Shown here one piece after another: positions 38,464 through 52,690 of a DNA stretch of 64,000 nt. The DNA comes from Cardiobacterium hominis (GTDB lineage Bacteria > Pseudomonadota > Gammaproteobacteria > Cardiobacteriales > Cardiobacteriaceae), in contig NZ_LR134365.1 of NCBI RefSeq assembly GCF_900637305.1, forward strand, positions 2,596,501-2,660,500. The letters are read 5' to 3'. Below the pieces are notes generated by a model. It searched no databases and was not told where the DNA came from. It saw nothing but the letters and a program-made list of their open reading frames with translations. The translations under genes and the position numbers were made by a program. Positions within the stretch are counted from its first letter, which is position 1, and every line of letters begins with the position of its first letter.

Positions 38464-41400
38464 TAAACAGCGGTGATGGCATGGTTGCTGCTATCAAATT
38501 AAAGAAGAATGACACCTACCAGAGCCCCGCAACCTACCGTTTCGTGGCAAAATATTACCGTCACATTACCGGCCTATTTACAAGTTATGAAAGACCCGGG
38601 AAAACAACCGCTTAACCAGGAGACCCGTCATGGCCCGCATCACCCTTAGTCTGAAAAACCCCGTCGGTGACATCCTTGCCACCTACGCGCTTGATACCAC
38701 TGGCGTGGTACAGCACATCGAGGCAATGGATGACGTGTACTATCAGTTTACGGATGAGGCGAGCGGGATCGGGCCGGAACAGCTGATCACCGAGCGGAAG
38801 GGTGATGACCTCTACATCGCCTTTGATGATGGCACCGACCTGATCATCGACCACTACTTTAGCCAGGGAGAAGGCGCGCTGGTTGGCACACAAGCCAACG
38901 GCGGACTGCATAGCTACCCCGTGGCCGCCCTTAGCGAACACGAATTGGCAGCGGAAGTTGCCGCTGCACAAACGTTTGCGCCTGATACTGTGGACAACGC
39001 CGGGCTGGCCGCTCTCGGTGGGCTCGCCCTGGTGGGCGGTGGTATCGCACTTGCCGCGCATAACCACGACAAACATCATCACGACAACAACGTGACACCG
39101 CAGCCGCAACCCGAACCACAACCCAACCCGAACCCGCAACCCAACCCGAACCCGAACCCGAACCCGAACCCGCAACCTAACCCGAACCCGCAACCTAACC
39201 CGAACCCGCAACCTAACCCGAACCCGCAACCTAACCCGAACCCGCAACCTAACCCGAACCCGCAACCTAACCCGAACCCGCAACCTAACCCGAACCCGCA
39301 ACCTAACCCGAATCCGCAACCCAATCCAAATCCGCGACCCAATCCAAATCCGCAACCCAATCCAAATCCGCAACCCAATCCAAATCCGCAACCCAATCCA
39401 AATCCGCAACCTAACCCGAACCCACAGCCGCCGCAACCCAATCACGCGGGCAAAATTAGCATCAGCGGCGAGGCGAAAGTCGGACAAACGCTGACCGCCG
39501 CCGTTGCCGATGACGACGGCGTACCCGCTAACGTGCAATACCAATGGCTGCGCGACGGTCGGCCCATCAGCGGACAAACGGGCAGCAGCTACACGCTCAC
39601 CAAAGACGACGCGGGACACAAAATCACCGTACGCGCGACCTACAAAGACAACGCTGGACATGATGAAAGCCCGCTGAGCGAGGCAACAGCAGCAGTTGCC
39701 GACGTCCCTGCACCGAATCCGCAGCCTAATCCGAACCCGCAGCCGCAACCCAATCACGAAGGGAAAATCACCCTTAGCGGCGAAGCGAAAGTCGGACAAA
39801 CCCTGACCGCTGCCGTTAGCGATGACGACGGCGTACCAAGCAACGTGCAATACCAGTGGTTACGCGACGGCCAGCCGATTAACGGACAAACGGGCAGCAG
39901 CTACACGCTCACCAAAGACGACGCGGGACACAAAATCACCGTACGCGCGACCTACAAAGACAACGCTGGACACGACGAAAACCCGCTAAGCGAGGCCACC
40001 GCTACCGTTACCGATACCCCGGCACCAAATCCGCCGCCGCAACCCAATCACGCGGGCAAAATTAGCATCAGTGGTGAGGCCAAAGTTGGACAAACATTGA
40101 CCGCTGCCGTTAGCGACGACGACGGCGTCCCCGCTAACGTGCAATACCAATGGCTGCGCGACGGCCAGCCGATTAGCGGACAAACGGGCAGCAGCTACAC
40201 CCTCACCCGTGACGACGCGGGACACAAAATCACCGTGCGCGCCACCTACAAAGACAACGCCGGACACGATGAAAGCCCGCTAAGCGAGGCAACAGCGGCG
40301 GTTGCCGACACCCCTGCACCAAATCCGCAGCCGAATCCAAATCCGCAGCCGCAACCCAATCATGAAGGCAAAATCACTATCAGCGGTGAGACCAAAGTCG
40401 GACAAACGCTGACCGCTGCCGTTAGCGATGACGACGGCGTACCCGCTAACGTGCAATACCAGTGGTTGCGTGACGGTCAGCCGATTGCCAACCAAACAGG
40501 CAACACCTATACCCTCACCCGCGACGACGCGGGACACAAAATCACCGTACGCGCGACCTACAAAGACAACGCCGGACACGACGAAAGCCCGCTAAGCGAG
40601 GCAACAGCGGCGGTTGCTGACGTCCCCGCGCCAAATCCGCAGCCAAATCCGCAGCCAAACCCACAACCGAATCCAAACCCGAATCCGCAACCGCAACCCA
40701 ATCACGCAGGCAAAATCAGTATCAGCGGCGAAGCGAAAGTCGGGCAAACGCTGACCGCAGCCGTTAGCGATGACGACGGCGTACCAAGCGACGTGCAATA
40801 CCAATGGCTACGAGACGGCCAGCCGATTGCCAACCAAACAGGCAGCAGCTACACGCTCACCCGCGACGACGCCGGGCACAAAATCACCGTGCGCGCGATC
40901 TACAAAGACAACGCCGGACACGACGAAACCCCGTTGAGCGAGGCCACGGCTACCGTCGCCGATACCCCGGCACCAAATCCGCCGCCGCAACCGAATCACG
41001 CAGGGAAAATCAGCATCAGTGGTGAGGCCAAAGTTGGACAAACATTGACCGCTGCCGTTAGCGATGACGACGGCGTACCCGCTAACGTGCAATACCAGTG
41101 GTTGCGTGACGGCCAGCCGATTGCCAATCAAACAGGCAACACCTATACCCTCACCCGCGACGACGCGGGACACAAAATCATCGTGCGCGCGACCTACAAA
41201 GACAACGCCGGACACGATGAAAGCCCGACGAGCGAGGCGACGGCGAGCGTGGCAGATAACGCTAACGCGCCGTTGATGCACGACGATTTCTCGTCCTATC
41301 CACTGCACAAGACTTACGTCGATAACGATACTTTTGGTGCGTGGAAAGTGGCCTTTGCCGGCTATGGCAACGCTGAAATCATTGATAACGGTGGTGGCAA

Positions 41401-42873
41401 TCAGGCCTTGCAATTAAAGCCGATGGCGCGTAGCGGACAGACAGAGACTTCATCCACAATGGTTGTTAGCACCATGCAGACGGGGGATGAGTTCACTTAT
41501 AGCGGCACCATCGCCACTCCTGAACAGCTGCGTCAGGGTGCAATACCCAATGCTTGGGAAACGGCATGGCTCGTGTGGAATCACACCGATAACGACCACT
41601 ACTATTATTTTGTTGCCCGCGCTGATGGTTGGGAACTCGGCAAACGCGACCCTGCTTACAGCGGTGGCCAGCGCTTCATGGCGACCGGCAGCGAAAGCTG
41701 GCCGTTGGCGGAGCCCAAAAATTTTGTCGTCACGAAAAGCGGCAACACCGTGGAAATCAGCATCAACGGCAAGGTGATTACCACCTTTACCGATGACGAA
41801 AATCCCTATACCGGCGGCACCATCGGCCTCTATACCGAAGATGCGCGCATCGTCGCCGATGACATCAACCTGACGGCAACGGCCAACATCACCGGCACGA
41901 CCAACCACGGTGGCGTGGCCTCCATCAGCGGCAAGGCCGCGACCGGTGAAGTCTTGCACGCCGCCATCAGCGATGGCGACGGTGCTGTCAGCAACGTTAG
42001 CTATCAGTGGATGGCCGCCGGCAAGGAGATCAGCGGAGCAACCGGCGAAACCTACACCGTCACAGCGGATAACAGCGGCAAAATCATCAGCGTGCGCATC
42101 ACCTATACCGATAGCACTGGCAAAGTGGAAAGCGTCATCAGCCCGCCCACAGCCGTAGTAGACAGCGGCAATGACGGCGGTGCGAACCAACGGGGGCAAG
42201 TCACCCTGAGCGGCACAGCCGCCGTCGGCGAGACCCTGACTGCAAACGTTAGCGATGGCGACGGCCTGCCTGACCGCATCCAGTACACCTGGCTGGCAAA
42301 CGGAGCGGCGATCAACGGCGCGAACGGCAGCAGCTATACCATCACCGCCGCCGATGTCGGCAAAGTCATCAGTGTGCAGGTGTATTACTACGATAAGGCA
42401 GGGCATGAGGAAAACCTGCTCAGTGACGCTACAAACGCCGTCACCGACACCGCACCGCCGCCGGCGGAAAACCACGCACCGACCGGCAGCGTCACCATTA
42501 CAGGCGAAGCCGTAGTCGGCAAAACCCTCAACGCCTCTAATGACCTGGCCGATGATGACGGCTTGGGTAACATTACCTATCACTGGCTGGCGGATGGCAA
42601 AGAAATCGGCACGGGGGCGAGCTACACCCTGACCGAAGCCGAAAAAGGCAAAACTATCACGGTTAAAGCGACCTATACCGACGGCAAAGGCACAGCAGAA
42701 GCGGTGGAAAGCCGTGCGACCGATGCCGTCGCTGAAGATACCCCGCCCCCCGCGAACCACGAAGGCACAGTTGCTATCAGTGGTGAAGCCAAGATTGGCA
42801 GCACTCTCACCGCTGCCCTTGATGACAAGGACGGTGTTGACACCGCCCAGGCACAATACCAATGGCTGCGCGA
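38464..42873 (+). repeat. Large direct duplication, copy 2
   Basis: Matches 14012-18115 nearly perfectly including the 163-bp promoter region. Differences are repeat-number changes: fewer PNPN units but six instead of five first-block Ig-like repeats. After 42873 (GCTGCGCGA) the two genes diverge, first within a homologous Ig-like domain and then completely. Confidence 0.92.
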
Positions 42874-45800
42874 TGGTCATCCCATTAACGGGCAGACAGG
42901 CAATACCTATCAGCTCATCCAAGAGGATGCCGGGCACAAAATTACCGTGCAGGCGACCTATAAAGACAACACCGGACATGATGAAAGCCCTGTCAGTGAA
43001 GCAGCGGATATCCCCGCCCTGTCTGCCAACCATCAGGGCAGCGTTGCCATTAGTGGCGAAGCGAAAGTGGGCAATACTCTTACTGCGACTGTAAGCGACG
43101 GCGATGACTTCGCTGCTGACAAAGTGCAATACCAATGGCTGCGCGACGATCAGCCTATTGATAGTGCCAACAGCAGCACCTACACCCTGACCAAAGACGA
43201 CGCCGGACATAAAATCACCGTGCGCGCCACCTATCAGGACAATGCCGGGCATGATGAAAACCCGACCAGTGATGGGACTGACATCCCCATGCCGCCGCCG
43301 TCTGGCAAAGTCGGTGAATATGTACCGAAGCCGACCACCGACTTTATTGCCAACGTCAAAGATGCGGAATATGGCGCCAAGGGCGACGGGCAAACGGATG
43401 ACACGGCTGCTATCCAGAAAGCCATTGATGCGGTCGCGGAAAAAGGCGGCGGTATCGTCGATATTCCAAACGGCACCTATCTGATTGACGCCATGCGTCA
43501 GGAAACCTCGTCCTACGAAACCAGCGGCCTCGTCCTGAAAAGCAACGTCATCCTGCGCATGGCTGACGGCACTGTGCTCAAATCGCTGCCGAACGACTCG
43601 CAGTTCGCCTCCGTCATCACCATCAAAGACGCCAACAACGCCCATATGTACGGCGGTACGGTAGTAGGCGACCGCAGCATCCACACTGGCGAATACGGCG
43701 AATGGGGTCACGGTGTGCGCATCACAAATTCCACCAACGTCGTCATCGAGAAAGTCACCTCAAAAGAAAACTGGGGTGACGGCTTCTACGTCGGCAAGCG
43801 CGGCGGCAGCGACATCGAGACCCAAAACATCACCTTCTATCAGGTGAACGCCGATCACAACCGCCGCCAGGGCATCTCCATTACCCACGGCAAGGGCATC
43901 AAAGTCCTCAACTCCGTCTTCAAGGATACCGACGGCACCGACCCGCGCGCCGGCATCGACATCGAGCCGAACAAAAACGAACAAGTCAGCGACGTGGAAT
44001 TGCGCGGCAACACCTTCTCCGGCAACCGCTACGGTATCGTTGCCTCGAACCACATGCACGGCGGCAGCACGGCGGTGAAAAACGTTACCTTCGAAAACAA
44101 CATCGTCGAGGATAACCACGTTGGCATCCTCTACGTCGGCGTCGAAGGCGGCACCATCCGCCACAACACCGTGCGTCAAAAACACGATATGCCCGAGAAA
44201 TACCCCTATCACCACCAGTACGGCATAGAACTGCGCAACGGGGCCGTGCATCCGACCACCGGCGTTACCGTCAGCGATAACGACCTCTACGGCGGCAACG
44301 TCATCGACCGCCAGACCAGTGGCAACACCATCGGCACCAACCACTTCAAGAGCGCCGTGTACATCAAGGGGATTGCCCAGCCGGGACAAACCCTCACTGC
44401 CGAAGTCTATGACGGTGATTACGGCGAACTGTACCGCCACATCAGCATTAAAGTGCCGGCCAAATCCGTGACCAGCTACCGCTGGTATGCCGACGGCGTA
44501 GAAATTGAAGGGGCGCACGAATCCACCTACACCCTGACCGAGGCGGAAAAAGGCAAGAAAATCACCGTCAAAATCGCCTACACCGACACCGCCGGGCAGG
44601 AAGAAAGCGCCACCAGCACCGATACCATGCCGGTTGGCTACGAGAACCACGCGCCGACCGACATCACCCTCGATCCACTCGTCATCTACGGCAACGAAGA
44701 CCAGGCTGAAGTCGGCACCCTCAAAGCCATTGACGCGGACAAGGGCGACCGCTTCACCTACACCGTCAATGACGACCGTTTCGAAGTCAACGGCGACATG
44801 CTGCGTCTGAAAAAAGGACAAAGCCTCGACTACGACAAAGTGAACAGCGTCACCCTCACCGTCACCGCGACCGACCAGATGGGAGCAAGCTACAGCAAAA
44901 CCTTCACCACCTACATCCGCGCGCCGAAAGGAATGCCCGGCTTCGACTACTACGACCTCACCCTGTCTGCCAACAAACTGATGGAAGGACAGGATGGCGC
45001 CAGCGTCGGCAAACTCACCCTGCGTGACCGCAGCGTCGGCAAAGACTACACCTACCACGTCAGCGACCCGCGTTTCGAAATCGTGGACGGCACCCTCAAA
45101 CTCAAAGCCGGGCAGAAAATCAACTACGACCAGGAACAAACCGTCGCCGTCAGCGTGACCGTCAGCAACAGCGGCGGCATGACCATGCGCAAAACCTTCA
45201 CCCTGCACGTCGAAGACGACCCGAACTACCCGCCCAGCGGCAACAACGTACTGCCTGAACCTGTGGACATCCACAACGCCACCGAGGCGGCTGATGCCCT
45301 GCACAAACACGACGCCGACAGCGCAGACAGCCCTAACCACAGCGGCCAAAACAGCGACGGCCACGGCGCAGCGGCAAACCACGCGGAAAGCGGCGATACC
45401 CATACCACCACTGACCACGCGCAGCACGACGGCGCCGCAAACAACGCCGCGCAGACCCTGGGCGATAGCGATGCCCCCATCCACCTCAGCGCGCCCCTCA
45501 ACGCCGCGGATCACGCCGAACTGGCAGACAAGAGCAGCGCAGAAATCCTCGACCACCTCGGCGAGCATGGCGGCGACGCCTTCACCTTTGACGCCAGCGA
45601 AACCCCGCACACCCTCACCGGCACGGACGGCAACGACAACCTCGTCGCGGTCGGCGGCGCGAACACCCTCAAAGGCGGCGAAGGTGCGGACCAGTTCATC
45701 TTCATCACCCAGCCAAAAGACGGGGCCAGCCCGGCGCTGAGCCAAATCCTCGACCTCAACAGCGGGGAAGACCGAATCCGCCTCGTCGCAGGCAAAGGCG

Positions 45801-45961
45801 AAAGCATCAGCGACCTGCAATACGACGCCGACAGCCGCCTCCTCAGCTACACCCTGCACGACAGCGAAAATCGCAGCTACCACAACAGCATCACGGTGAA
45901 CGCGCACGACGGCCACGCCCTGACGCAGGAAGAAGTGCTGGCGGCGGTGAGCATCCTGTAA
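38630..45961 (+). CDS. Giant secreted multidomain RTX-type protein 2 (parallel beta-helix lyase-like domain)
   Basis: 2443 residues. Residues 1 to about 1415 repeat giant protein 1: BapA-prefix-like N-terminus, Pro-Asn linker (158-267), six Ig-like repeats (269-883), 3-keto-disaccharide-hydrolase-like jelly roll (883-1084) and Ig-like domains to about 1555. Then comes a pectate-lyase-3-type right-handed beta-helix (about 1571-1907) with its hallmark AEYGAKGDGQTDDTAAIQKA (from 1579), GHGVRITNSTNVVIEKV, RRQGISITHGKGIKV and PRAGIDIEPNK. After that follow one Ig-like domain, two cadherin-like domains (2006-2100, 2107-2198), an Asp/His-rich stretch and an RTX-like C-terminus (GTDGNDNLV, LKGGEGADQFIFI; 2328-2374). 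Likely exported by type I secretion. The helix could be a polysaccharide lyase, hydrolase or epimerase; I cannot pick the catalytic residues. Confidence 0.87.
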   Translation: MARITLSLKNPVGDILATYALDTTGVVQHIEAMDDVYYQFTDEASGIGPEQLITERKGDDLYIAFDDGTDLIIDHYFSQGEGALVGTQANGGLHSYPVAALSEHELAAEVAAAQTFAPDTVDNAGLAALGGLALVGGGIALAAHNHDKHHHDNNVTPQPQPEPQPNPNPQPNPNPNPNPNPQPNPNPQPNPNPQPNPNPQPNPNPQPNPNPQPNPNPQPNPNPQPNPNPQPNPNPRPNPNPQPNPNPQPNPNPQPNPNPQPNPNPQPPQPNHAGKISISGEAKVGQTLTAAVADDDGVPANVQYQWLRDGRPISGQTGSSYTLTKDDAGHKITVRATYKDNAGHDESPLSEATAAVADVPAPNPQPNPNPQPQPNHEGKITLSGEAKVGQTLTAAVSDDDGVPSNVQYQWLRDGQPINGQTGSSYTLTKDDAGHKITVRATYKDNAGHDENPLSEATATVTDTPAPNPPPQPNHAGKISISGEAKVGQTLTAAVSDDDGVPANVQYQWLRDGQPISGQTGSSYTLTRDDAGHKITVRATYKDNAGHDESPLSEATAAVADTPAPNPQPNPNPQPQPNHEGKITISGETKVGQTLTAAVSDDDGVPANVQYQWLRDGQPIANQTGNTYTLTRDDAGHKITVRATYKDNAGHDESPLSEATAAVADVPAPNPQPNPQPNPQPNPNPNPQPQPNHAGKISISGEAKVGQTLTAAVSDDDGVPSDVQYQWLRDGQPIANQTGSSYTLTRDDAGHKITVRAIYKDNAGHDETPLSEATATVADTPAPNPPPQPNHAGKISISGEAKVGQTLTAAVSDDDGVPANVQYQWLRDGQPIANQTGNTYTLTRDDAGHKIIVRATYKDNAGHDESPTSEATASVADNANAPLMHDDFSSYPLHKTYVDNDTFGAWKVAFAGYGNAEIIDNGGGNQALQLKPMARSGQTETSSTMVVSTMQTGDEFTYSGTIATPEQLRQGAIPNAWETAWLVWNHTDNDHYYYFVARADGWELGKRDPAYSGGQRFMATGSESWPLAEPKNFVVTKSGNTVEISINGKVITTFTDDENPYTGGTIGLYTEDARIVADDINLTATANITGTTNHGGVASISGKAATGEVLHAAISDGDGAVSNVSYQWMAAGKEISGATGETYTVTADNSGKIISVRITYTDSTGKVESVISPPTAVVDSGNDGGANQRGQVTLSGTAAVGETLTANVSDGDGLPDRIQYTWLANGAAINGANGSSYTITAADVGKVISVQVYYYDKAGHEENLLSDATNAVTDTAPPPAENHAPTGSVTITGEAVVGKTLNASNDLADDDGLGNITYHWLADGKEIGTGASYTLTEAEKGKTITVKATYTDGKGTAEAVESRATDAVAEDTPPPANHEGTVAISGEAKIGSTLTAALDDKDGVDTAQAQYQWLRDGHPINGQTGNTYQLIQEDAGHKITVQATYKDNTGHDESPVSEAADIPALSANHQGSVAISGEAKVGNTLTATVSDGDDFAADKVQYQWLRDDQPIDSANSSTYTLTKDDAGHKITVRATYQDNAGHDENPTSDGTDIPMPPPSGKVGEYVPKPTTDFIANVKDAEYGAKGDGQTDDTAAIQKAIDAVAEKGGGIVDIPNGTYLIDAMRQETSSYETSGLVLKSNVILRMADGTVLKSLPNDSQFASVITIKDANNAHMYGGTVVGDRSIHTGEYGEWGHGVRITNSTNVVIEKVTSKENWGDGFYVGKRGGSDIETQNITFYQVNADHNRRQGISITHGKGIKVLNSVFKDTDGTDPRAGIDIEPNKNEQVSDVELRGNTFSGNRYGIVASNHMHGGSTAVKNVTFENNIVEDNHVGILYVGVEGGTIRHNTVRQKHDMPEKYPYHHQYGIELRNGAVHPTTGVTVSDNDLYGGNVIDRQTSGNTIGTNHFKSAVYIKGIAQPGQTLTAEVYDGDYGELYRHISIKVPAKSVTSYRWYADGVEIEGAHESTYTLTEAEKGKKITVKIAYTDTAGQEESATSTDTMPVGYENHAPTDITLDPLVIYGNEDQAEVGTLKAIDADKGDRFTYTVNDDRFEVNGDMLRLKKGQSLDYDKVNSVTLTVTATDQMGASYSKTFTTYIRAPKGMPGFDYYDLTLSANKLMEGQDGASVGKLTLRDRSVGKDYTYHVSDPRFEIVDGTLKLKAGQKINYDQEQTVAVSVTVSNSGGMTMRKTFTLHVEDDPNYPPSGNNVLPEPVDIHNATEAADALHKHDADSADSPNHSGQNSDGHGAAANHAESGDTHTTTDHAQHDGAANNAAQTLGDSDAPIHLSAPLNAADHAELADKSSAEILDHLGEHGGDAFTFDASETPHTLTGTDGNDNLVAVGGANTLKGGEGADQFIFITQPKDGASPALSQILDLNSGEDRIRLVAGKGESISDLQYDADSRLLSYTLHDSENRSYHNSITVNAHDGHALTQEEVLAAVSIL
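39110..39430 (+). repeat. PNPNPQ-encoding variable tandem repeat, copy 2
   Basis: Same 18-bp units as at 14650 but with different unit order and number, including a CGACCC (PRPN) variant unit near 39335. Such reiterated DNA is prone to slippage. Confidence 0.88.
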
Positions 45962-46376
45962 ACAGCGCCAAGCGGGACAAACACTGTTTTATATTCCCCC
46001 TTCCGGCCTTCGGCCACCTTCCCGGGTACCCATGAAAAAAATGCGAGCATTTTTTTCATGGAGCCCCGTCCCCCGTAAGCGGGGGAAAGGATTTTTTCCG
46101 TGCAAGATTCGGGCTTGGGCGCGCGCCAAGCGGATAAACACTGGGTTCGTGGGCAGCGCGCCAAGCGGGGTAAATGCTGGGTTCGTGGCGAGCCTCCAAG
46201 CGGGATAAACGCTGGGCTCGCGGCGTTTTTCACTCGTTCAGGCGGCGCAGGGCGGCGGCGAAATGATAGGGTGTTGCGTTTTCGGTATTGCCGCAGCTAT
46301 CCGCTTCGCGGATGGTTTTTCCGGTGGATTTATATTTTTAAACCCCATTTGTTAATTCATGGTAATGGCATTTAAC
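45962..46376. repeat. Repeat-rich gap between giant gene 2 and the microcin promoter
   Basis: Right after the giant gene stop there is one unit of the dispersed repeat (CGCCAAGCGGGACAAACACT at about 45967). Then comes a two-hairpin element: CCATGAAAAAAATGC (46030-46044) with GCATTTTTTTCATGG (46047-46061), followed by a CCCCCG...CGGGGG hairpin to about 46085. Next are three units of the dispersed repeat with a 33-36 bp period (46121-46223). No gene is supported here and no separate terminator for the giant gene is obvious; the perfect 15-bp hairpin may serve. Confidence 0.75.
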
Positions 46377-46407
46377 TTGAATATTTTCTTAGGGGGGGGG
46401 CTAATAT
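46377..46407 (+). promoter_or_regulatory. Microcin promoter with a G9 tract in the spacer, probable phase variation
   Basis: TTGAAT (46377-46382) and TAATAT (46402-46407) flank a 19-bp spacer that contains G9 (46392-46400). The optimum spacer is 17 bp, so loss of two Gs would give the optimum. This is the arrangement of known phase-variable neisserial promoters in which poly-G or poly-C length sets promoter strength. Confidence 0.65.
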
Positions 46408-46464
46408 CCATACCCGCAAGTAAACTTGCATTAACTTGTTCAACAAACTTAATGGAGTAAAACC

Positions 46465-46743
46465 ATGAAAGAGTTAACTATTAATGAAGTGAAAAAAGTA
46501 TCTGGTGCAAGAGGCTTTGATTCAGGAGATTTTTCTACTATTACTGGAATGGCAGGCGCCGCTTTTGGTAATAAAGTTTTTCCTGCTTGGAGATTTGCAG
46601 GTCCTTTTTGGCCAGGTTTAGCAGCTTGGGCTTTTGTACGTTTTGTTGCTGAGCCACAAATAAATATGACAAAACAAGATGTACAGAACTTAGGACAAAA
46701 CTATATTGACCGTGTTAATCGTGGTGAATACGTTCCTGACTGA
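46465..46743 (+). CDS. Class II microcin (bacteriocin) precursor
   Basis: 92 residues with GGAG before ATG 46465. The leader MKELTINEVKKVSGA is a double-glycine-type microcin leader: the pattern M(K/R)ELTxxEVxxVSG-A matches those of colicin V and microcin L, the latter also ending in GA. Cleavage after residue 15 gives a 77-residue product rich in Gly, Ala and aromatic residues (ITGMAGAAFGNKVFPAWRFA, GPFWPGLAAWAFVRF) with a polar tail (QDVQNLGQNYIDRVNRGEYV). There is no Ser/Gly-rich siderophore-attachment tail and no Cys pair, so it is neither a siderophore microcin nor disulfide-bridged. Downstream exporter genes (HlyD, C39-ABC, TolC) complete a colicin-V-type locus. Target receptor is unknown. 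Confidence 0.8.
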   Translation: MKELTINEVKKVSGARGFDSGDFSTITGMAGAAFGNKVFPAWRFAGPFWPGLAAWAFVRFVAEPQINMTKQDVQNLGQNYIDRVNRGEYVPD

Positions 46744-46754
46744 TATTTGTTATG

Positions 46755-46778
46755 GAGCCATCTTTTACTAGATGGCTC
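46755..46778 (+). terminator. Hairpin after the microcin gene
   Basis: GAGCCATC (46755-46762) and GATGGCTC (46771-46778) around an 8-base loop. It lacks a strong T-run, so it may be a partial terminator or mRNA-stabilising element between microcin and immunity genes. Confidence 0.55.
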
Positions 46779-46805
46779 TAATACTTAATAGTAAGTATAG
46801 AATTA

Positions 46806-46985: not shown

Positions 46986-47000
46986 TATAGACGCAGTTAT

Positions 47001-47417
47001 ATGCTCCTATTCCGCAAGGAAGCGCTTGAAGCGCAGCAAGTTTCCGCGTTAGGGCGGATTTTGCTGTTTACGCCGCGCATTGCTGACGTCTTAATCGCGC
47101 TGGTGTTGTTATTTACGTTTTTATTGCTGCTATTCGTGATTTTCGGCAGTTATACGCGCAAGGCGACGGTCTATGGCGAGCTGGTGCCGGTGTCCGGTGT
47201 GATCAAGGTGTATCCGCCGCAAGGCGGGCGCATCGAGGCAGTCGAGGTGCAAAGCGGTGCGCGGGTGGCGAAGGGTGCGGTGTTGGTGCGCATCAACAGT
47301 GCGGTGGATACGGCGGGCGGCGATACGCAGGCGCGGGTGCTGGCCGCCTTGCAGGCGCAGCACTTGGTAAACAAACTTGCCTCTATATATCTGAATATAG
47401 AGGCAACATTTAATTAA
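47001..47417 (+). pseudogene. Truncated 5' copy of the HlyD/CvaA-like gene
   Basis: Residues 1-121 repeat the N-terminus of the full-length adaptor at 47790 almost exactly (membrane helix, YTRKATVYGELVPVSGVIKV, YPPQGGRIEAVEVQSGARVA). At 47362 the match stops and a short unrelated tail (LVNKLASIYLNIEATFN) ends the frame. The 362-bp repeat (47001-47362 and 47790-48151) brackets the 120-aa membrane protein gene. A truncated product could be made but would lack the periplasmic coiled coil, so it should be non-functional. Confidence 0.85.
47377..47406 (+). terminator. Perfect 12-bp hairpin between the HlyD fragment and the 120-aa gene
   Basis: TTGCCTCTATAT (47377-47388), loop ATCTGA, ATATAGAGGCAA (47395-47406). 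It lies in the unique DNA at the repeat boundary. Only a weak T-run follows, so it may be a terminator or a structural feature of the inserted segment. Confidence 0.55.
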
Positions 47418-47423
47418 GAAATC

Positions 47424-47786
47424 ATGAGCTCAAATAAAAGAATATTTATAATCAATGCAATAAATATACTTTTTATTGCATTAGCCTTTGTGTCCAAGGA
47501 TCACCTATATAACAACTATATAGGTAACAATTCTTTCATAAATTACGCTTTTATATTATTAACTATAATAATTAGCATAGCACTTACTATTTCAACTAAT
47601 TTAGCAACTCTTACTGATAAGTATAGAAGACTTAACATTAGAAAATACTGCATTTATAATGCCATATTTCTTCCTATATTAGCTCTTATTTTCTTTCTTA
47701 CTAGAGATTTTTTCCTAATAATTTATATTATGCTGCTTTTTAATGCAATTGTGTCCGCAAAATTTCTTTATCAAATTTATAATTAA
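47424..47786 (+). CDS. AT-rich polytopic membrane protein, second immunity candidate
   Basis: 120 residues with four membrane helices (IFIINAINILFIALAFVS, FINYAFILLTIIISIALTIS, YCIYNAIFLPILALIFFL, FFLIIYIMLLFNAIVSAKFL). It is extremely AT-rich compared with the HlyD sequence on both sides. It lies between the two copies of the HlyD 5' repeat and ends three bases before the full-length HlyD start, so it was probably inserted into the exporter operon. In microcin loci such genes are usually immunity proteins; here that is inferred from position and topology. No family recognised. Confidence 0.65.
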   Translation: MSSNKRIFIINAINILFIALAFVSKDHLYNNYIGNNSFINYAFILLTIIISIALTISTNLATLTDKYRRLNIRKYCIYNAIFLPILALIFFLTRDFFLIIYIMLLFNAIVSAKFLYQIYN

Positions 47787-47789
47787 GAT

Positions 47790-49052
47790 ATGTCCCTATT
47801 CCGCAAGGAAGCGCTTGAAGCGCAGCAGGTTTCCGCATTAGGGCGGATTTTGCTGTTTACGCCGCGCATTGCTGACGTCTTAATTGCGCTGGTGTTGTTG
47901 TTTACGTTTTTATTAGTGCTGTTCGTGATTTTCGGCAGCTATACGCGCAAGGCGACGGTCTATGGCGAACTGGTGCCAGTGTCCGGTGTGATCAAGGTGT
48001 ATCCGCCGCAAGGCGGGCGCATCGAGGCAGTCGAGGTGCAAAGCGGTGCGCGGGTGGCGAAGGGCGCGGTATTGGCGCGCATCAACAGCGCAGTGGATAC
48101 GGCGGGCGGCGATACGCAGGCGCGGGTGCTGGCCGCCTTGCAGGCGCAGCATGATGCCTTGCAGGAGAATCTCGGCCGCAATGCCCGCGCGCAAAAGGAG
48201 TATGCGGCGCAGATGACGGGGCGGCGCGAGGCGCTGGCCACGCAGGCGCAGATGCTGGCAGGGCAGGAGAAGCTGCTCGCCAGCCGGCAAGGATTGGCGG
48301 CGAAGAATGAGGTGCGCTACAAACGGCTGATGCAGCAGGATTATGTGGCGCGCGAGTCGTATGAGGAACGGGTGCAGGAGCGTTTGTCGCTGGATGTGCA
48401 GTTGCAGCAGGCAAAGCGGGAGCGGCAGTCGGTGGCGCAGCAGTTGTTGTCGCTGGATAACGAGCGCTCGCAGCAGTTGGATAGTTTCAGCCGCGAAGCG
48501 CATGAGTTGTCGCGGCAGTTGGCGCAGGTGGAAGCACAGATAGCCGAGACAGAATCGCGGCAGGCGGTATTGCTGCGCGCGCCGCAGGACGGGGTGGTGT
48601 CTGCCCTGTTTGTTGAGGCGGGGCAGCAGGCGGCGGTGAATCAGCCGCTGCTGGCTCTGGTGCCGGAGGATGCCCGCTATGAAGCGGATTTGTATGCCCT
48701 CAGCCACAATATGGGCTTCGTCCACCCCGGGCAGACGGTGTATGTGCGCTATGGCGCGTATCCGTATCAGAAGTTCGGGCAATATGCCGCGACGGTGCGG
48801 GATGTGGCGAAGACGGCATCCCCGCTCAATGAGTTGACGGATACGGTTTTCCCTGCCTTGCAGGGGCAGTCGGTGTACCGCATCCGCGCCGATTTGGCGC
48901 AGGATTTTGTTCTCGCGTATGGCGAGAAGCAGCCGTTGATGGCCGGAATGCAGTTTGAGGCGGACATCGTGCAGGAGAAGCGGCGAATTTTTGAATGGAT
49001 GGTGGAGCCGCTGTTTTCTATTCGCGAGAAGTGGGGCGCTCATGCTGAATAA
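47790..49052 (+). CDS. HlyD/CvaA-family periplasmic adaptor of the microcin exporter
   Basis: 420 residues. A single membrane helix near the N-terminus (IADVLIALVLLFTFLLVLFV), then a biotinyl-lipoyl half (GELVPVSGVIKVYPPQGGRI), a long coiled-coil hairpin (about 125-245: EYAAQMTGRREALATQAQML, QQAKRERQSVAQQLLSLDNE), the second lipoyl half (VLLRAPQDGVVSALFVEAGQ) and the beta-barrel domain. It bridges the inner-membrane ABC exporter to TolC. The C-terminal YEADIVQEKRRIFEWMVEPL-like end (here FEADIVQEKRRIFEWMVEPL) is CvaA-like. Its stop overlaps the start of the ABC gene (49042-49052). Confidence 0.93.
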   Translation: MSLFRKEALEAQQVSALGRILLFTPRIADVLIALVLLFTFLLVLFVIFGSYTRKATVYGELVPVSGVIKVYPPQGGRIEAVEVQSGARVAKGAVLARINSAVDTAGGDTQARVLAALQAQHDALQENLGRNARAQKEYAAQMTGRREALATQAQMLAGQEKLLASRQGLAAKNEVRYKRLMQQDYVARESYEERVQERLSLDVQLQQAKRERQSVAQQLLSLDNERSQQLDSFSREAHELSRQLAQVEAQIAETESRQAVLLRAPQDGVVSALFVEAGQQAAVNQPLLALVPEDARYEADLYALSHNMGFVHPGQTVYVRYGAYPYQKFGQYAATVRDVAKTASPLNELTDTVFPALQGQSVYRIRADLAQDFVLAYGEKQPLMAGMQFEADIVQEKRRIFEWMVEPLFSIREKWGAHAE

Positions 49053-52599: not shown

Positions 52600-52690
52600 A
52601 TTAACCCCGCTTGGTAACTGCCACGAATCCAAGTTTTACCCCGCTTGGAGAGCCCAGTAATGACGCCGCTTGGCGGCCGCCCTGCCCTTT
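52600..52690 (-). repeat. Inverted units of the CAAGCGG dispersed repeat
   Basis: Three copies of the CCGCTTGG form (reverse complement CCAAGCGG) lie between the TolC stop and the terminator, with an irregular spacing of about 30 bp. Confidence 0.7.

What the first reader, a model, noticed from the sequence alone, without database searches (positions are those of the whole stretch)
46377..46407. G9 tract in the microcin promoter spacer: likely ON/OFF switching
TTGAAT and TAATAT are separated by 19 bp containing nine Gs. Changing the tract to seven would give the ideal 17-bp spacing. Poly-G or poly-C spacers are the established mechanism of phase-variable promoters in Neisseria (porA, opc). 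Switching toxin production while keeping immunity would be a bet-hedging strategy; I know of no phase-variable microcin.
Basis: partly seen in the sequence, partly recalled or inferred. Interest (0 to 1): 0.82.

Follow-up and report, generated by a model that had tools for sequence, protein, structure and literature searches.

The report
Poly-G promoter shared by microcin genes
A run of nine Gs sits between the two RNA-polymerase contact boxes of a bacterial toxin-peptide gene, and the same run, in different lengths, sits at the same spot in front of three related genes, which suggests (but does not yet prove) that the bacterium turns its antibacterial peptides up and down at random by lengthening and shortening the run.

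Summary
Comparison strengthens it. The same genome holds a second locus with two microcin-like genes. A Cardiobacteriaceae MAG holds a third locus. All four genes share one promoter module: TTGA(C/A), 9-10 divergent bases, a G run, a -10-like hexamer 0-1 bp later, then at about +1 an invariant GCAAG-N4-CTTGC dyad. The G runs are 7, 7, 9 and 10 long and give spacers of 16, 16, 19 and 20 bp. In the whole 2.67-Mb genome only four sites fit -35/poly-G/-10, and three are these promoters. Four microcin-like genes beside related exporters outside the family lack any G/C run of 5 or more. A DNA methylase gene of the same genome is split at C11, and its congener orthologue has C9 there, so long G/C runs in this genus probably do change length. 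Best reading: porA/tp0126-type transcriptional phase variation of a cassette-borne microcin promoter. Not shown: length change in one clone, promoter activity, antibacterial activity, or separate expression of immunity.

The parts
46377..46382 (+). -35-like hexamer TTGAAT (aligned with TTGACG, TTGACG and TTGACA of the related promoters)
46392..46400 (+). G9 run in the promoter spacer; 7, 7 and 10 Gs at the same place in the three related promoters
46402..46407 (+). -10-like hexamer TAATAT
46416..46429 (+). GCAAG-TAAA-CTTGC dyad about 8 nt after the -10: 5'-end mRNA stem-loop or operator; only three such dyads in the genome, all at microcin promoters
46465..46743 (+). microcin-like precursor, 92 aa, leader MKELTINEVKKVSGA, good ribosome-binding site GGAG
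   Evidence: leader pattern as in the related genes; no family match in Pfam or NCBIfam
46753..46783 (+). strong hairpin between the microcin and immunity-like genes (region folds at -21.9 kcal/mol); similar hairpins in both L060 cassettes, not in L061
46806..46985 (+). 59-aa hydrophobic ORF, putative immunity protein (inferred from place and size)
   Evidence: no family match
46999..47376 (+). duplicated 5' end of hlyD, about 96% identical to the true gene: scar of cassette insertion
47424..47786 (+). 120-aa AT-rich hydrophobic orphan ORF, possibly the immunity gene of an earlier cassette (inferred)
   Evidence: no family match
47790..49052 (+). HlyD-type periplasmic adaptor
   Evidence: Pfam PF13437
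49042..51174 (+). ABC exporter with C39 peptidase domain (leader-cleaving, CvaB-like)
   Evidence: Pfam PF03412, PF00664, PF00005
51171..52592 (+). TolC-like outer-membrane channel
   Evidence: Pfam PF02321

Best explanation
The G9 run is a contingency tract in the spacer of a cassette-borne microcin promoter. Slipped-strand mispairing during replication adds or removes Gs, moving the -35 and -10 boxes closer or further apart (16 to 20 bp in the copies seen). Transcription is highest near 17 bp and low at 19-20 bp, so a clone would hold cells with high, medium or low microcin output, as for meningococcal porA and treponemal tp0126. In the sequenced genome this locus (19 bp) would be low, the two genes at the second locus (16 bp) moderately active, and the MAG copy (20 bp) off. 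Shown here: conserved placement of the run, different run lengths between loci, and the resulting spacer changes. Inferred: slippage within a clone, the expression effect, and the antibacterial role of the peptide.
For: Exact -35/G9/-10 architecture. Same module at three related microcin-like genes with G7, G7, G10 and spacers of 16, 16, 20; the spacer bases other than G have diverged (ATTTTCTTA, CCTTTTGCC, AAATGTTACA) while the G run stays. Three of four genome-wide matches to -35/poly-G/-10 are these promoters. A conserved dyad 7-8 nt after each -10 supports the promoter assignment and a start near 46414. Between the two paralogous promoters a block of about 80 bp around the G run has no difference, while the rest of the 276-bp alignment holds all 25 mismatches and 6 gap positions. 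Four microcin-like genes beside related exporters outside the family have no G/C run of 5 or more within 150 bp upstream. Same genome: a DNA methylase is frame-split at C11; the congener's orthologue has C9 there and is also split. porA and tp0126 precedents.
Against: No two strains or reads of the same locus could be compared; length differences are between paralogues or species, not within a clone. The two most similar promoters both have G7, which is short for frequent slippage (or was kept equal by gene conversion). The MAG -10 (TAAGGT) is weak. Only 17 runs of 8 or more G/C exist in the genome, so it is not rich in such loci. Sample: four promoters, at most three independent.
Confidence: 0.62

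Rival explanations
1. The G run is a fixed part of a regulator-dependent promoter: a protein binds the over-long or GC-rich spacer (as MerR-type activators bind 19-20-bp spacers), possibly together with the GCAAG-N4-CTTGC dyad as an operator, and tract length does not change within clones.
For: Spacers of 19 and 20 bp in two copies; a perfect dyad near +1 at all four promoters, found nowhere else in the genome; an invariant block of about 80 bp in the paralogues.
Against: Spacer length is not constant (16, 16, 19, 20), which MerR-type action needs; the G run has no dyad; no regulator gene was recognised among the genes of the window operon.
Confidence: 0.2
2. The run only tunes basal promoter strength over evolutionary time: a slowly drifting homopolymer in promoters inherited with the cassette, with no biologically relevant switching.
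For: Both near-identical paralogues keep G7; no within-clone data.
Against: The run is kept while neighbouring spacer bases diverge; lengths of 9 and 10 lie in the range that varies within isolates for the treponemal tprL poly-G (7-11 G; PMC7864442).
Confidence: 0.14
3. Chance homopolymer next to chance hexamers; the real promoter lies elsewhere.
For: A 19-bp spacer is poor for sigma-70, and the promoter scan, limited to 16-18 bp, did not list it.
Against: Four microcin promoters share the arrangement, and the genome-wide pattern search finds almost only these.
Confidence: 0.04

Closest known systems
porA promoter, Neisseria meningitidis (PMC3639595)
   Same: poly-G run between -35 and -10; length sets expression (11G high, 10G about 2-fold lower, 9G about 13-fold lower on the surface)
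   Different: controls a porin; switching shown experimentally. Here the target is a microcin-like gene, the promoter is repeated at three genes of one genome and switching is not shown
tp0126 promoter, Treponema pallidum (described in PMC7864442)
   Same: poly-G between -35 and -10; optimum when the box distance is 17 nt
   Different: OmpW-like protein; different phylum; effect of tract length measured there, not here
opc promoter, Neisseria meningitidis (discussed in PMC7864442)
   Same: homopolymer in the promoter changes transcription
   Different: its poly-C covers the -35 region and is thought to act through a regulator, so it is not a spacer mechanism
nap island, Neisseria gonorrhoeae (PMC11798529)
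   Same: class II microcin-like peptides with GG leaders and a C39 peptidase; poly-G in napR and poly-T in napC, judged phase-variable from tract-length variation between isolates; bet-hedging proposed
   Different: tracts lie in reading frames (translational), not promoters; the peptides showed no antibacterial activity and cause autolysis
Class II microcins with CvaB/CvaA/TolC export (e.g. microcin V, E. coli; from general knowledge)
   Same: leader peptide, C39-ABC exporter, HlyD adaptor, TolC-like channel
   Different: no sequence relative of this peptide found; known ones are, as far as recalled, regulated by iron or growth phase rather than a homopolymer

Membership tests
Phase-variable promoter of porA/tp0126 type | homopolymer of about 7 or more G/C lying between -35 and -10 | tested here: met
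Phase-variable promoter of porA/tp0126 type | tract length differs between copies of the promoter and changes the spacer length | tested here: met
   7, 7, 9, 10 Gs; spacers 16, 16, 19, 20; between paralogues and species only
Phase-variable promoter of porA/tp0126 type | tract length changes reversibly within a clone or between strains of the species | not testable with these tools
   one genome per species held; no reads or strain sets of this species
Phase-variable promoter of porA/tp0126 type | expression follows tract length | not testable with these tools
   needs reporter fusions or RNA measurements
Class II microcin with C39-ABC export | short precursor with double-glycine-type leader (consensus M(K/R)xLxxxEvxxVSG(G/A)) | tested here: met
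   MKELTINEVKKVSGA here (GA instead of GG); GG in the three related genes
Class II microcin with C39-ABC export | adjacent C39-peptidase ABC exporter, HlyD adaptor and outer-membrane channel | tested here: met
   PF03412+PF00664+PF00005, PF13437, PF02321
Class II microcin with C39-ABC export | sequence relationship of the mature peptide to a known microcin | tested here: inconclusive
   no Pfam or NCBIfam match, no relative in genome contigs, 57 relatives or plasmids; known microcins have very diverse mature parts, so a missing match says little and this is not a strict defining feature
Class II microcin with C39-ABC export | kills related bacteria; cognate immunity gene | not testable with these tools
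   needs an inhibition assay and immunity knock-out

The most novel reading that the evidence does not exclude
Cardiobacteriaceae carry a mobile microcin cassette whose own promoter is a poly-G contingency module. Each inserted toxin is switched independently by its own tract, so one clone becomes a mixture of cells making different combinations of microcins: combinatorial, stochastic chemical warfare at the transcriptional level.
Probability: 0.4. Interest if true: 0.8.

Novelty: new variant of a known kind. Interest (0 to 1): 0.62.

Why it matters
Bacteriocin production is usually described as induced by stress, iron or quorum. A heritable random switch on the promoter itself would be a different strategy: a few producers hedge for the clone while most cells save the cost. 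Because the same promoter drives three microcin-like genes in one genome, the prediction is testable by amplicon sequencing of three short tracts. It would also be a first such promoter family for the Cardiobacteriaceae as far as the held literature shows, and adds a probable phase-variable DNA methylase in the genus.

Tried and rejected
Microcin relatives: none in 57 related genomes, genome contigs or plasmids. Promoter module in 84,980 species: 8 hits, only the Cardiobacteriaceae MAG (the same contig as G008) is real, the other seven are chance by context; the one viral hit is chance; 369 Gammaproteobacteria: only the own genome. Sigma-54 promoter: the -24/-12 bases do not fit (inspection). 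Translational reading of the G run through the short ORF 46359-46460: not a plausible gene, and the run is upstream of the expected start. Compensatory changes in the dyad stem: none, the stem is invariant, so stem-loop and operator cannot be told apart. An own promoter for the immunity-like gene: only a 9/12 site inside the microcin gene (46680-46707), not convincingly above background. Most other long G/C runs in the genome are not in promoter-like positions. Literature: no paper on a phase-variable bacteriocin promoter found in the held library; subscription journals are mostly missing.

Full report
Observation. The sequence at 46377-46407 is as described: TTGAAT, nine bases (ATTTTCTTA), nine Gs, one C, TAATAT; the spacer is 19 bp. 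Downstream lie a good ribosome-binding site and a 92-aa ORF with a C39-type leader, MKELTINEVKKVSGA. Then come a 59-aa hydrophobic ORF, a duplicated 5' end of hlyD, a 120-aa AT-rich orphan ORF, and intact hlyD, C39-ABC exporter and TolC-like genes. The run is the only one of 8 or more G/C in the window, and the genome (2.67 Mb, one contig) has 17 such runs, of which seven are 9 or longer. Judged alone, against dinucleotide shuffles of its own 150-bp upstream region, the run is only moderately unusual (p about 0.012).

The comparison that matters. The exporter and HlyD searches found a second locus in the same genome (exporter 86%, HlyD 78% identical) and one in another genus of the family (exporter 75%), namely the contig JAUMXB010000022.1, a Cardiobacteriaceae MAG. 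They carry two and one microcin-like genes (leaders MKTLTANEVQTVSGG, MKELTVNEVQAVSGG, MKELTLNEVKEVSGG). Each is preceded by the same arrangement at nearly the same distance: TTGACG-CCTTTTGCC-G7-TACTAT (twice, spacer 16) and TTGACA-AAATGTTACA-G10-TAAGGT (spacer 20). After each -10, 7-8 nt on, comes GCAAG-N4-CTTGC; the dyad in its GCAAGNNAACTTGC form occurs three times in the genome, always at these promoters. As RNA this is a 5-bp stem with a GNRA loop (GGAA, GUAA, GAAA) in three of four and UAAA in the window copy, placed at the expected 5' end. It supports the assignment of the -10 and of the start near 46414-46416. It could equally be an operator; the invariant stem does not decide.

Why chance is excluded. 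A search of the whole genome for TTGA-N5-20-G6-N0-4-TANNNT gives four sites, three of them the microcin promoters, and the reversed-pattern control gives one. The non-G spacer bases differ between the loci while the G run stays. In the two paralogous promoters an 80-bp block holding the run is identical, and the remainder of the 276-bp alignment holds all 25 mismatches and 6 gap positions. As a control I took 20 exporter regions 31-47% identical from other Gammaproteobacteria. Four had a recognisable microcin-like gene nearby and none of these had a G or C run of 5 or more within 150 bp upstream. The arrangement is thus a trait of this family's cassettes, not of microcins in general; a pattern scan of 84,980 species found it nowhere else.

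Does poly-G change length in this genus? Direct data are missing: one genome per species is held and there are no reads. Indirect support comes from another gene. In the own genome a DNA methylase (PF01555) is split at a run of eleven C. The orthologue in another species of the genus has nine C at the same place, and its two parts also lie in different frames. A homologue in another family of the order is unbroken and has no run. That is the signature of a translational contingency locus and makes slippage of long G/C runs in this genus plausible.

Mechanism. Shown: position, conservation, and different run lengths with correspondingly different spacers (16, 16, 19, 20). Inferred: that runs slip in growing cultures; that expression peaks near 17 bp; that the peptide kills competitors. 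The experimental models are porA, where 11, 10 and 9 G give graded expression (PMC3639595), and tp0126, where the optimum is a 17-nt box distance (PMC7864442). On that model the window gene is low in the sequenced state and the second locus is moderately active. The main rival, a fixed regulator-dependent promoter, is weakened by the changing spacer length. The second rival, slow drift without relevant switching, remains open until a clonal culture is sequenced.

porA is graded rather than ON/OFF. Independent immunity is not shown: the immunity-like ORF follows the microcin gene after a strong hairpin (region -21.9 kcal/mol) that may lower its expression but does not give it its own promoter. 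A phase-variable microcin-like system has been predicted in gonococci (nap island, reading-frame tracts; PMC11798529), so the novelty lies in a transcriptional, cassette-borne, repeated switch.

Cassette history. Copies of the hlyD 5' end lie downstream of a microcin/immunity pair in the window (342/357 identical) and between the two pairs of the second locus (143/161). The simplest account is that microcin-immunity cassettes, each with its poly-G promoter, were inserted one after another by recombination at the hlyD start, leaving scars. If so, the switch travels with the toxin. This step is inference.

Noticed in passing
own genome G000:C1:1600346-1600356 (L020 around 1501-1511; L124); congener L129 3021-3029: DNA methylase gene split at a run of eleven C; the orthologue in another species of the genus has nine C at the same place and is also frame-split, while a homologue in another family (L128) is unbroken without a run. 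Candidate phase-variable methylase (phasevarion) of the genus.
   Followed up: partly
window 46999-47376 and 47788-48165; L060 between the two microcin cassettes: Duplicated 5' ends of hlyD flank the cassettes: scars suggesting stepwise insertion of microcin/immunity cassettes by recombination at the hlyD start.
   Followed up: partly
window 47424-47786: 120-aa AT-rich hydrophobic ORF with no microcin partner between two hlyD copies, preceded by a 12-bp hairpin (47377-47406); possibly an orphan immunity gene kept from an earlier cassette.
   Followed up: no
window 46753-46783; L060 both cassettes: Strong hairpins between the microcin and immunity-like genes in three of four cassettes, without a clear T run; perhaps partial terminators or 3'-end stabilisers.
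   Followed up: partly
own genome G000:C1:580364-580376 (L007, L125): Longest run of the genome, thirteen C, between genes just after a terminator-like hairpin; not in an obvious promoter.
   Followed up: partly
window 46125-46225 and 52620-52675: Degenerate repeats (about 35 nt, CCAAGCGG..AAACGCTGGGTTCGTGG) bracket the microcin operon, in inverted orientation on the far side; possible boundary or repeat element of the island.
   Followed up: no
window 38630-45961: Very large repetitive protein (2443 aa, many repeats, proline-asparagine-rich linker) directly upstream of the microcin locus; possibly a type I secreted adhesin.
   Followed up: no
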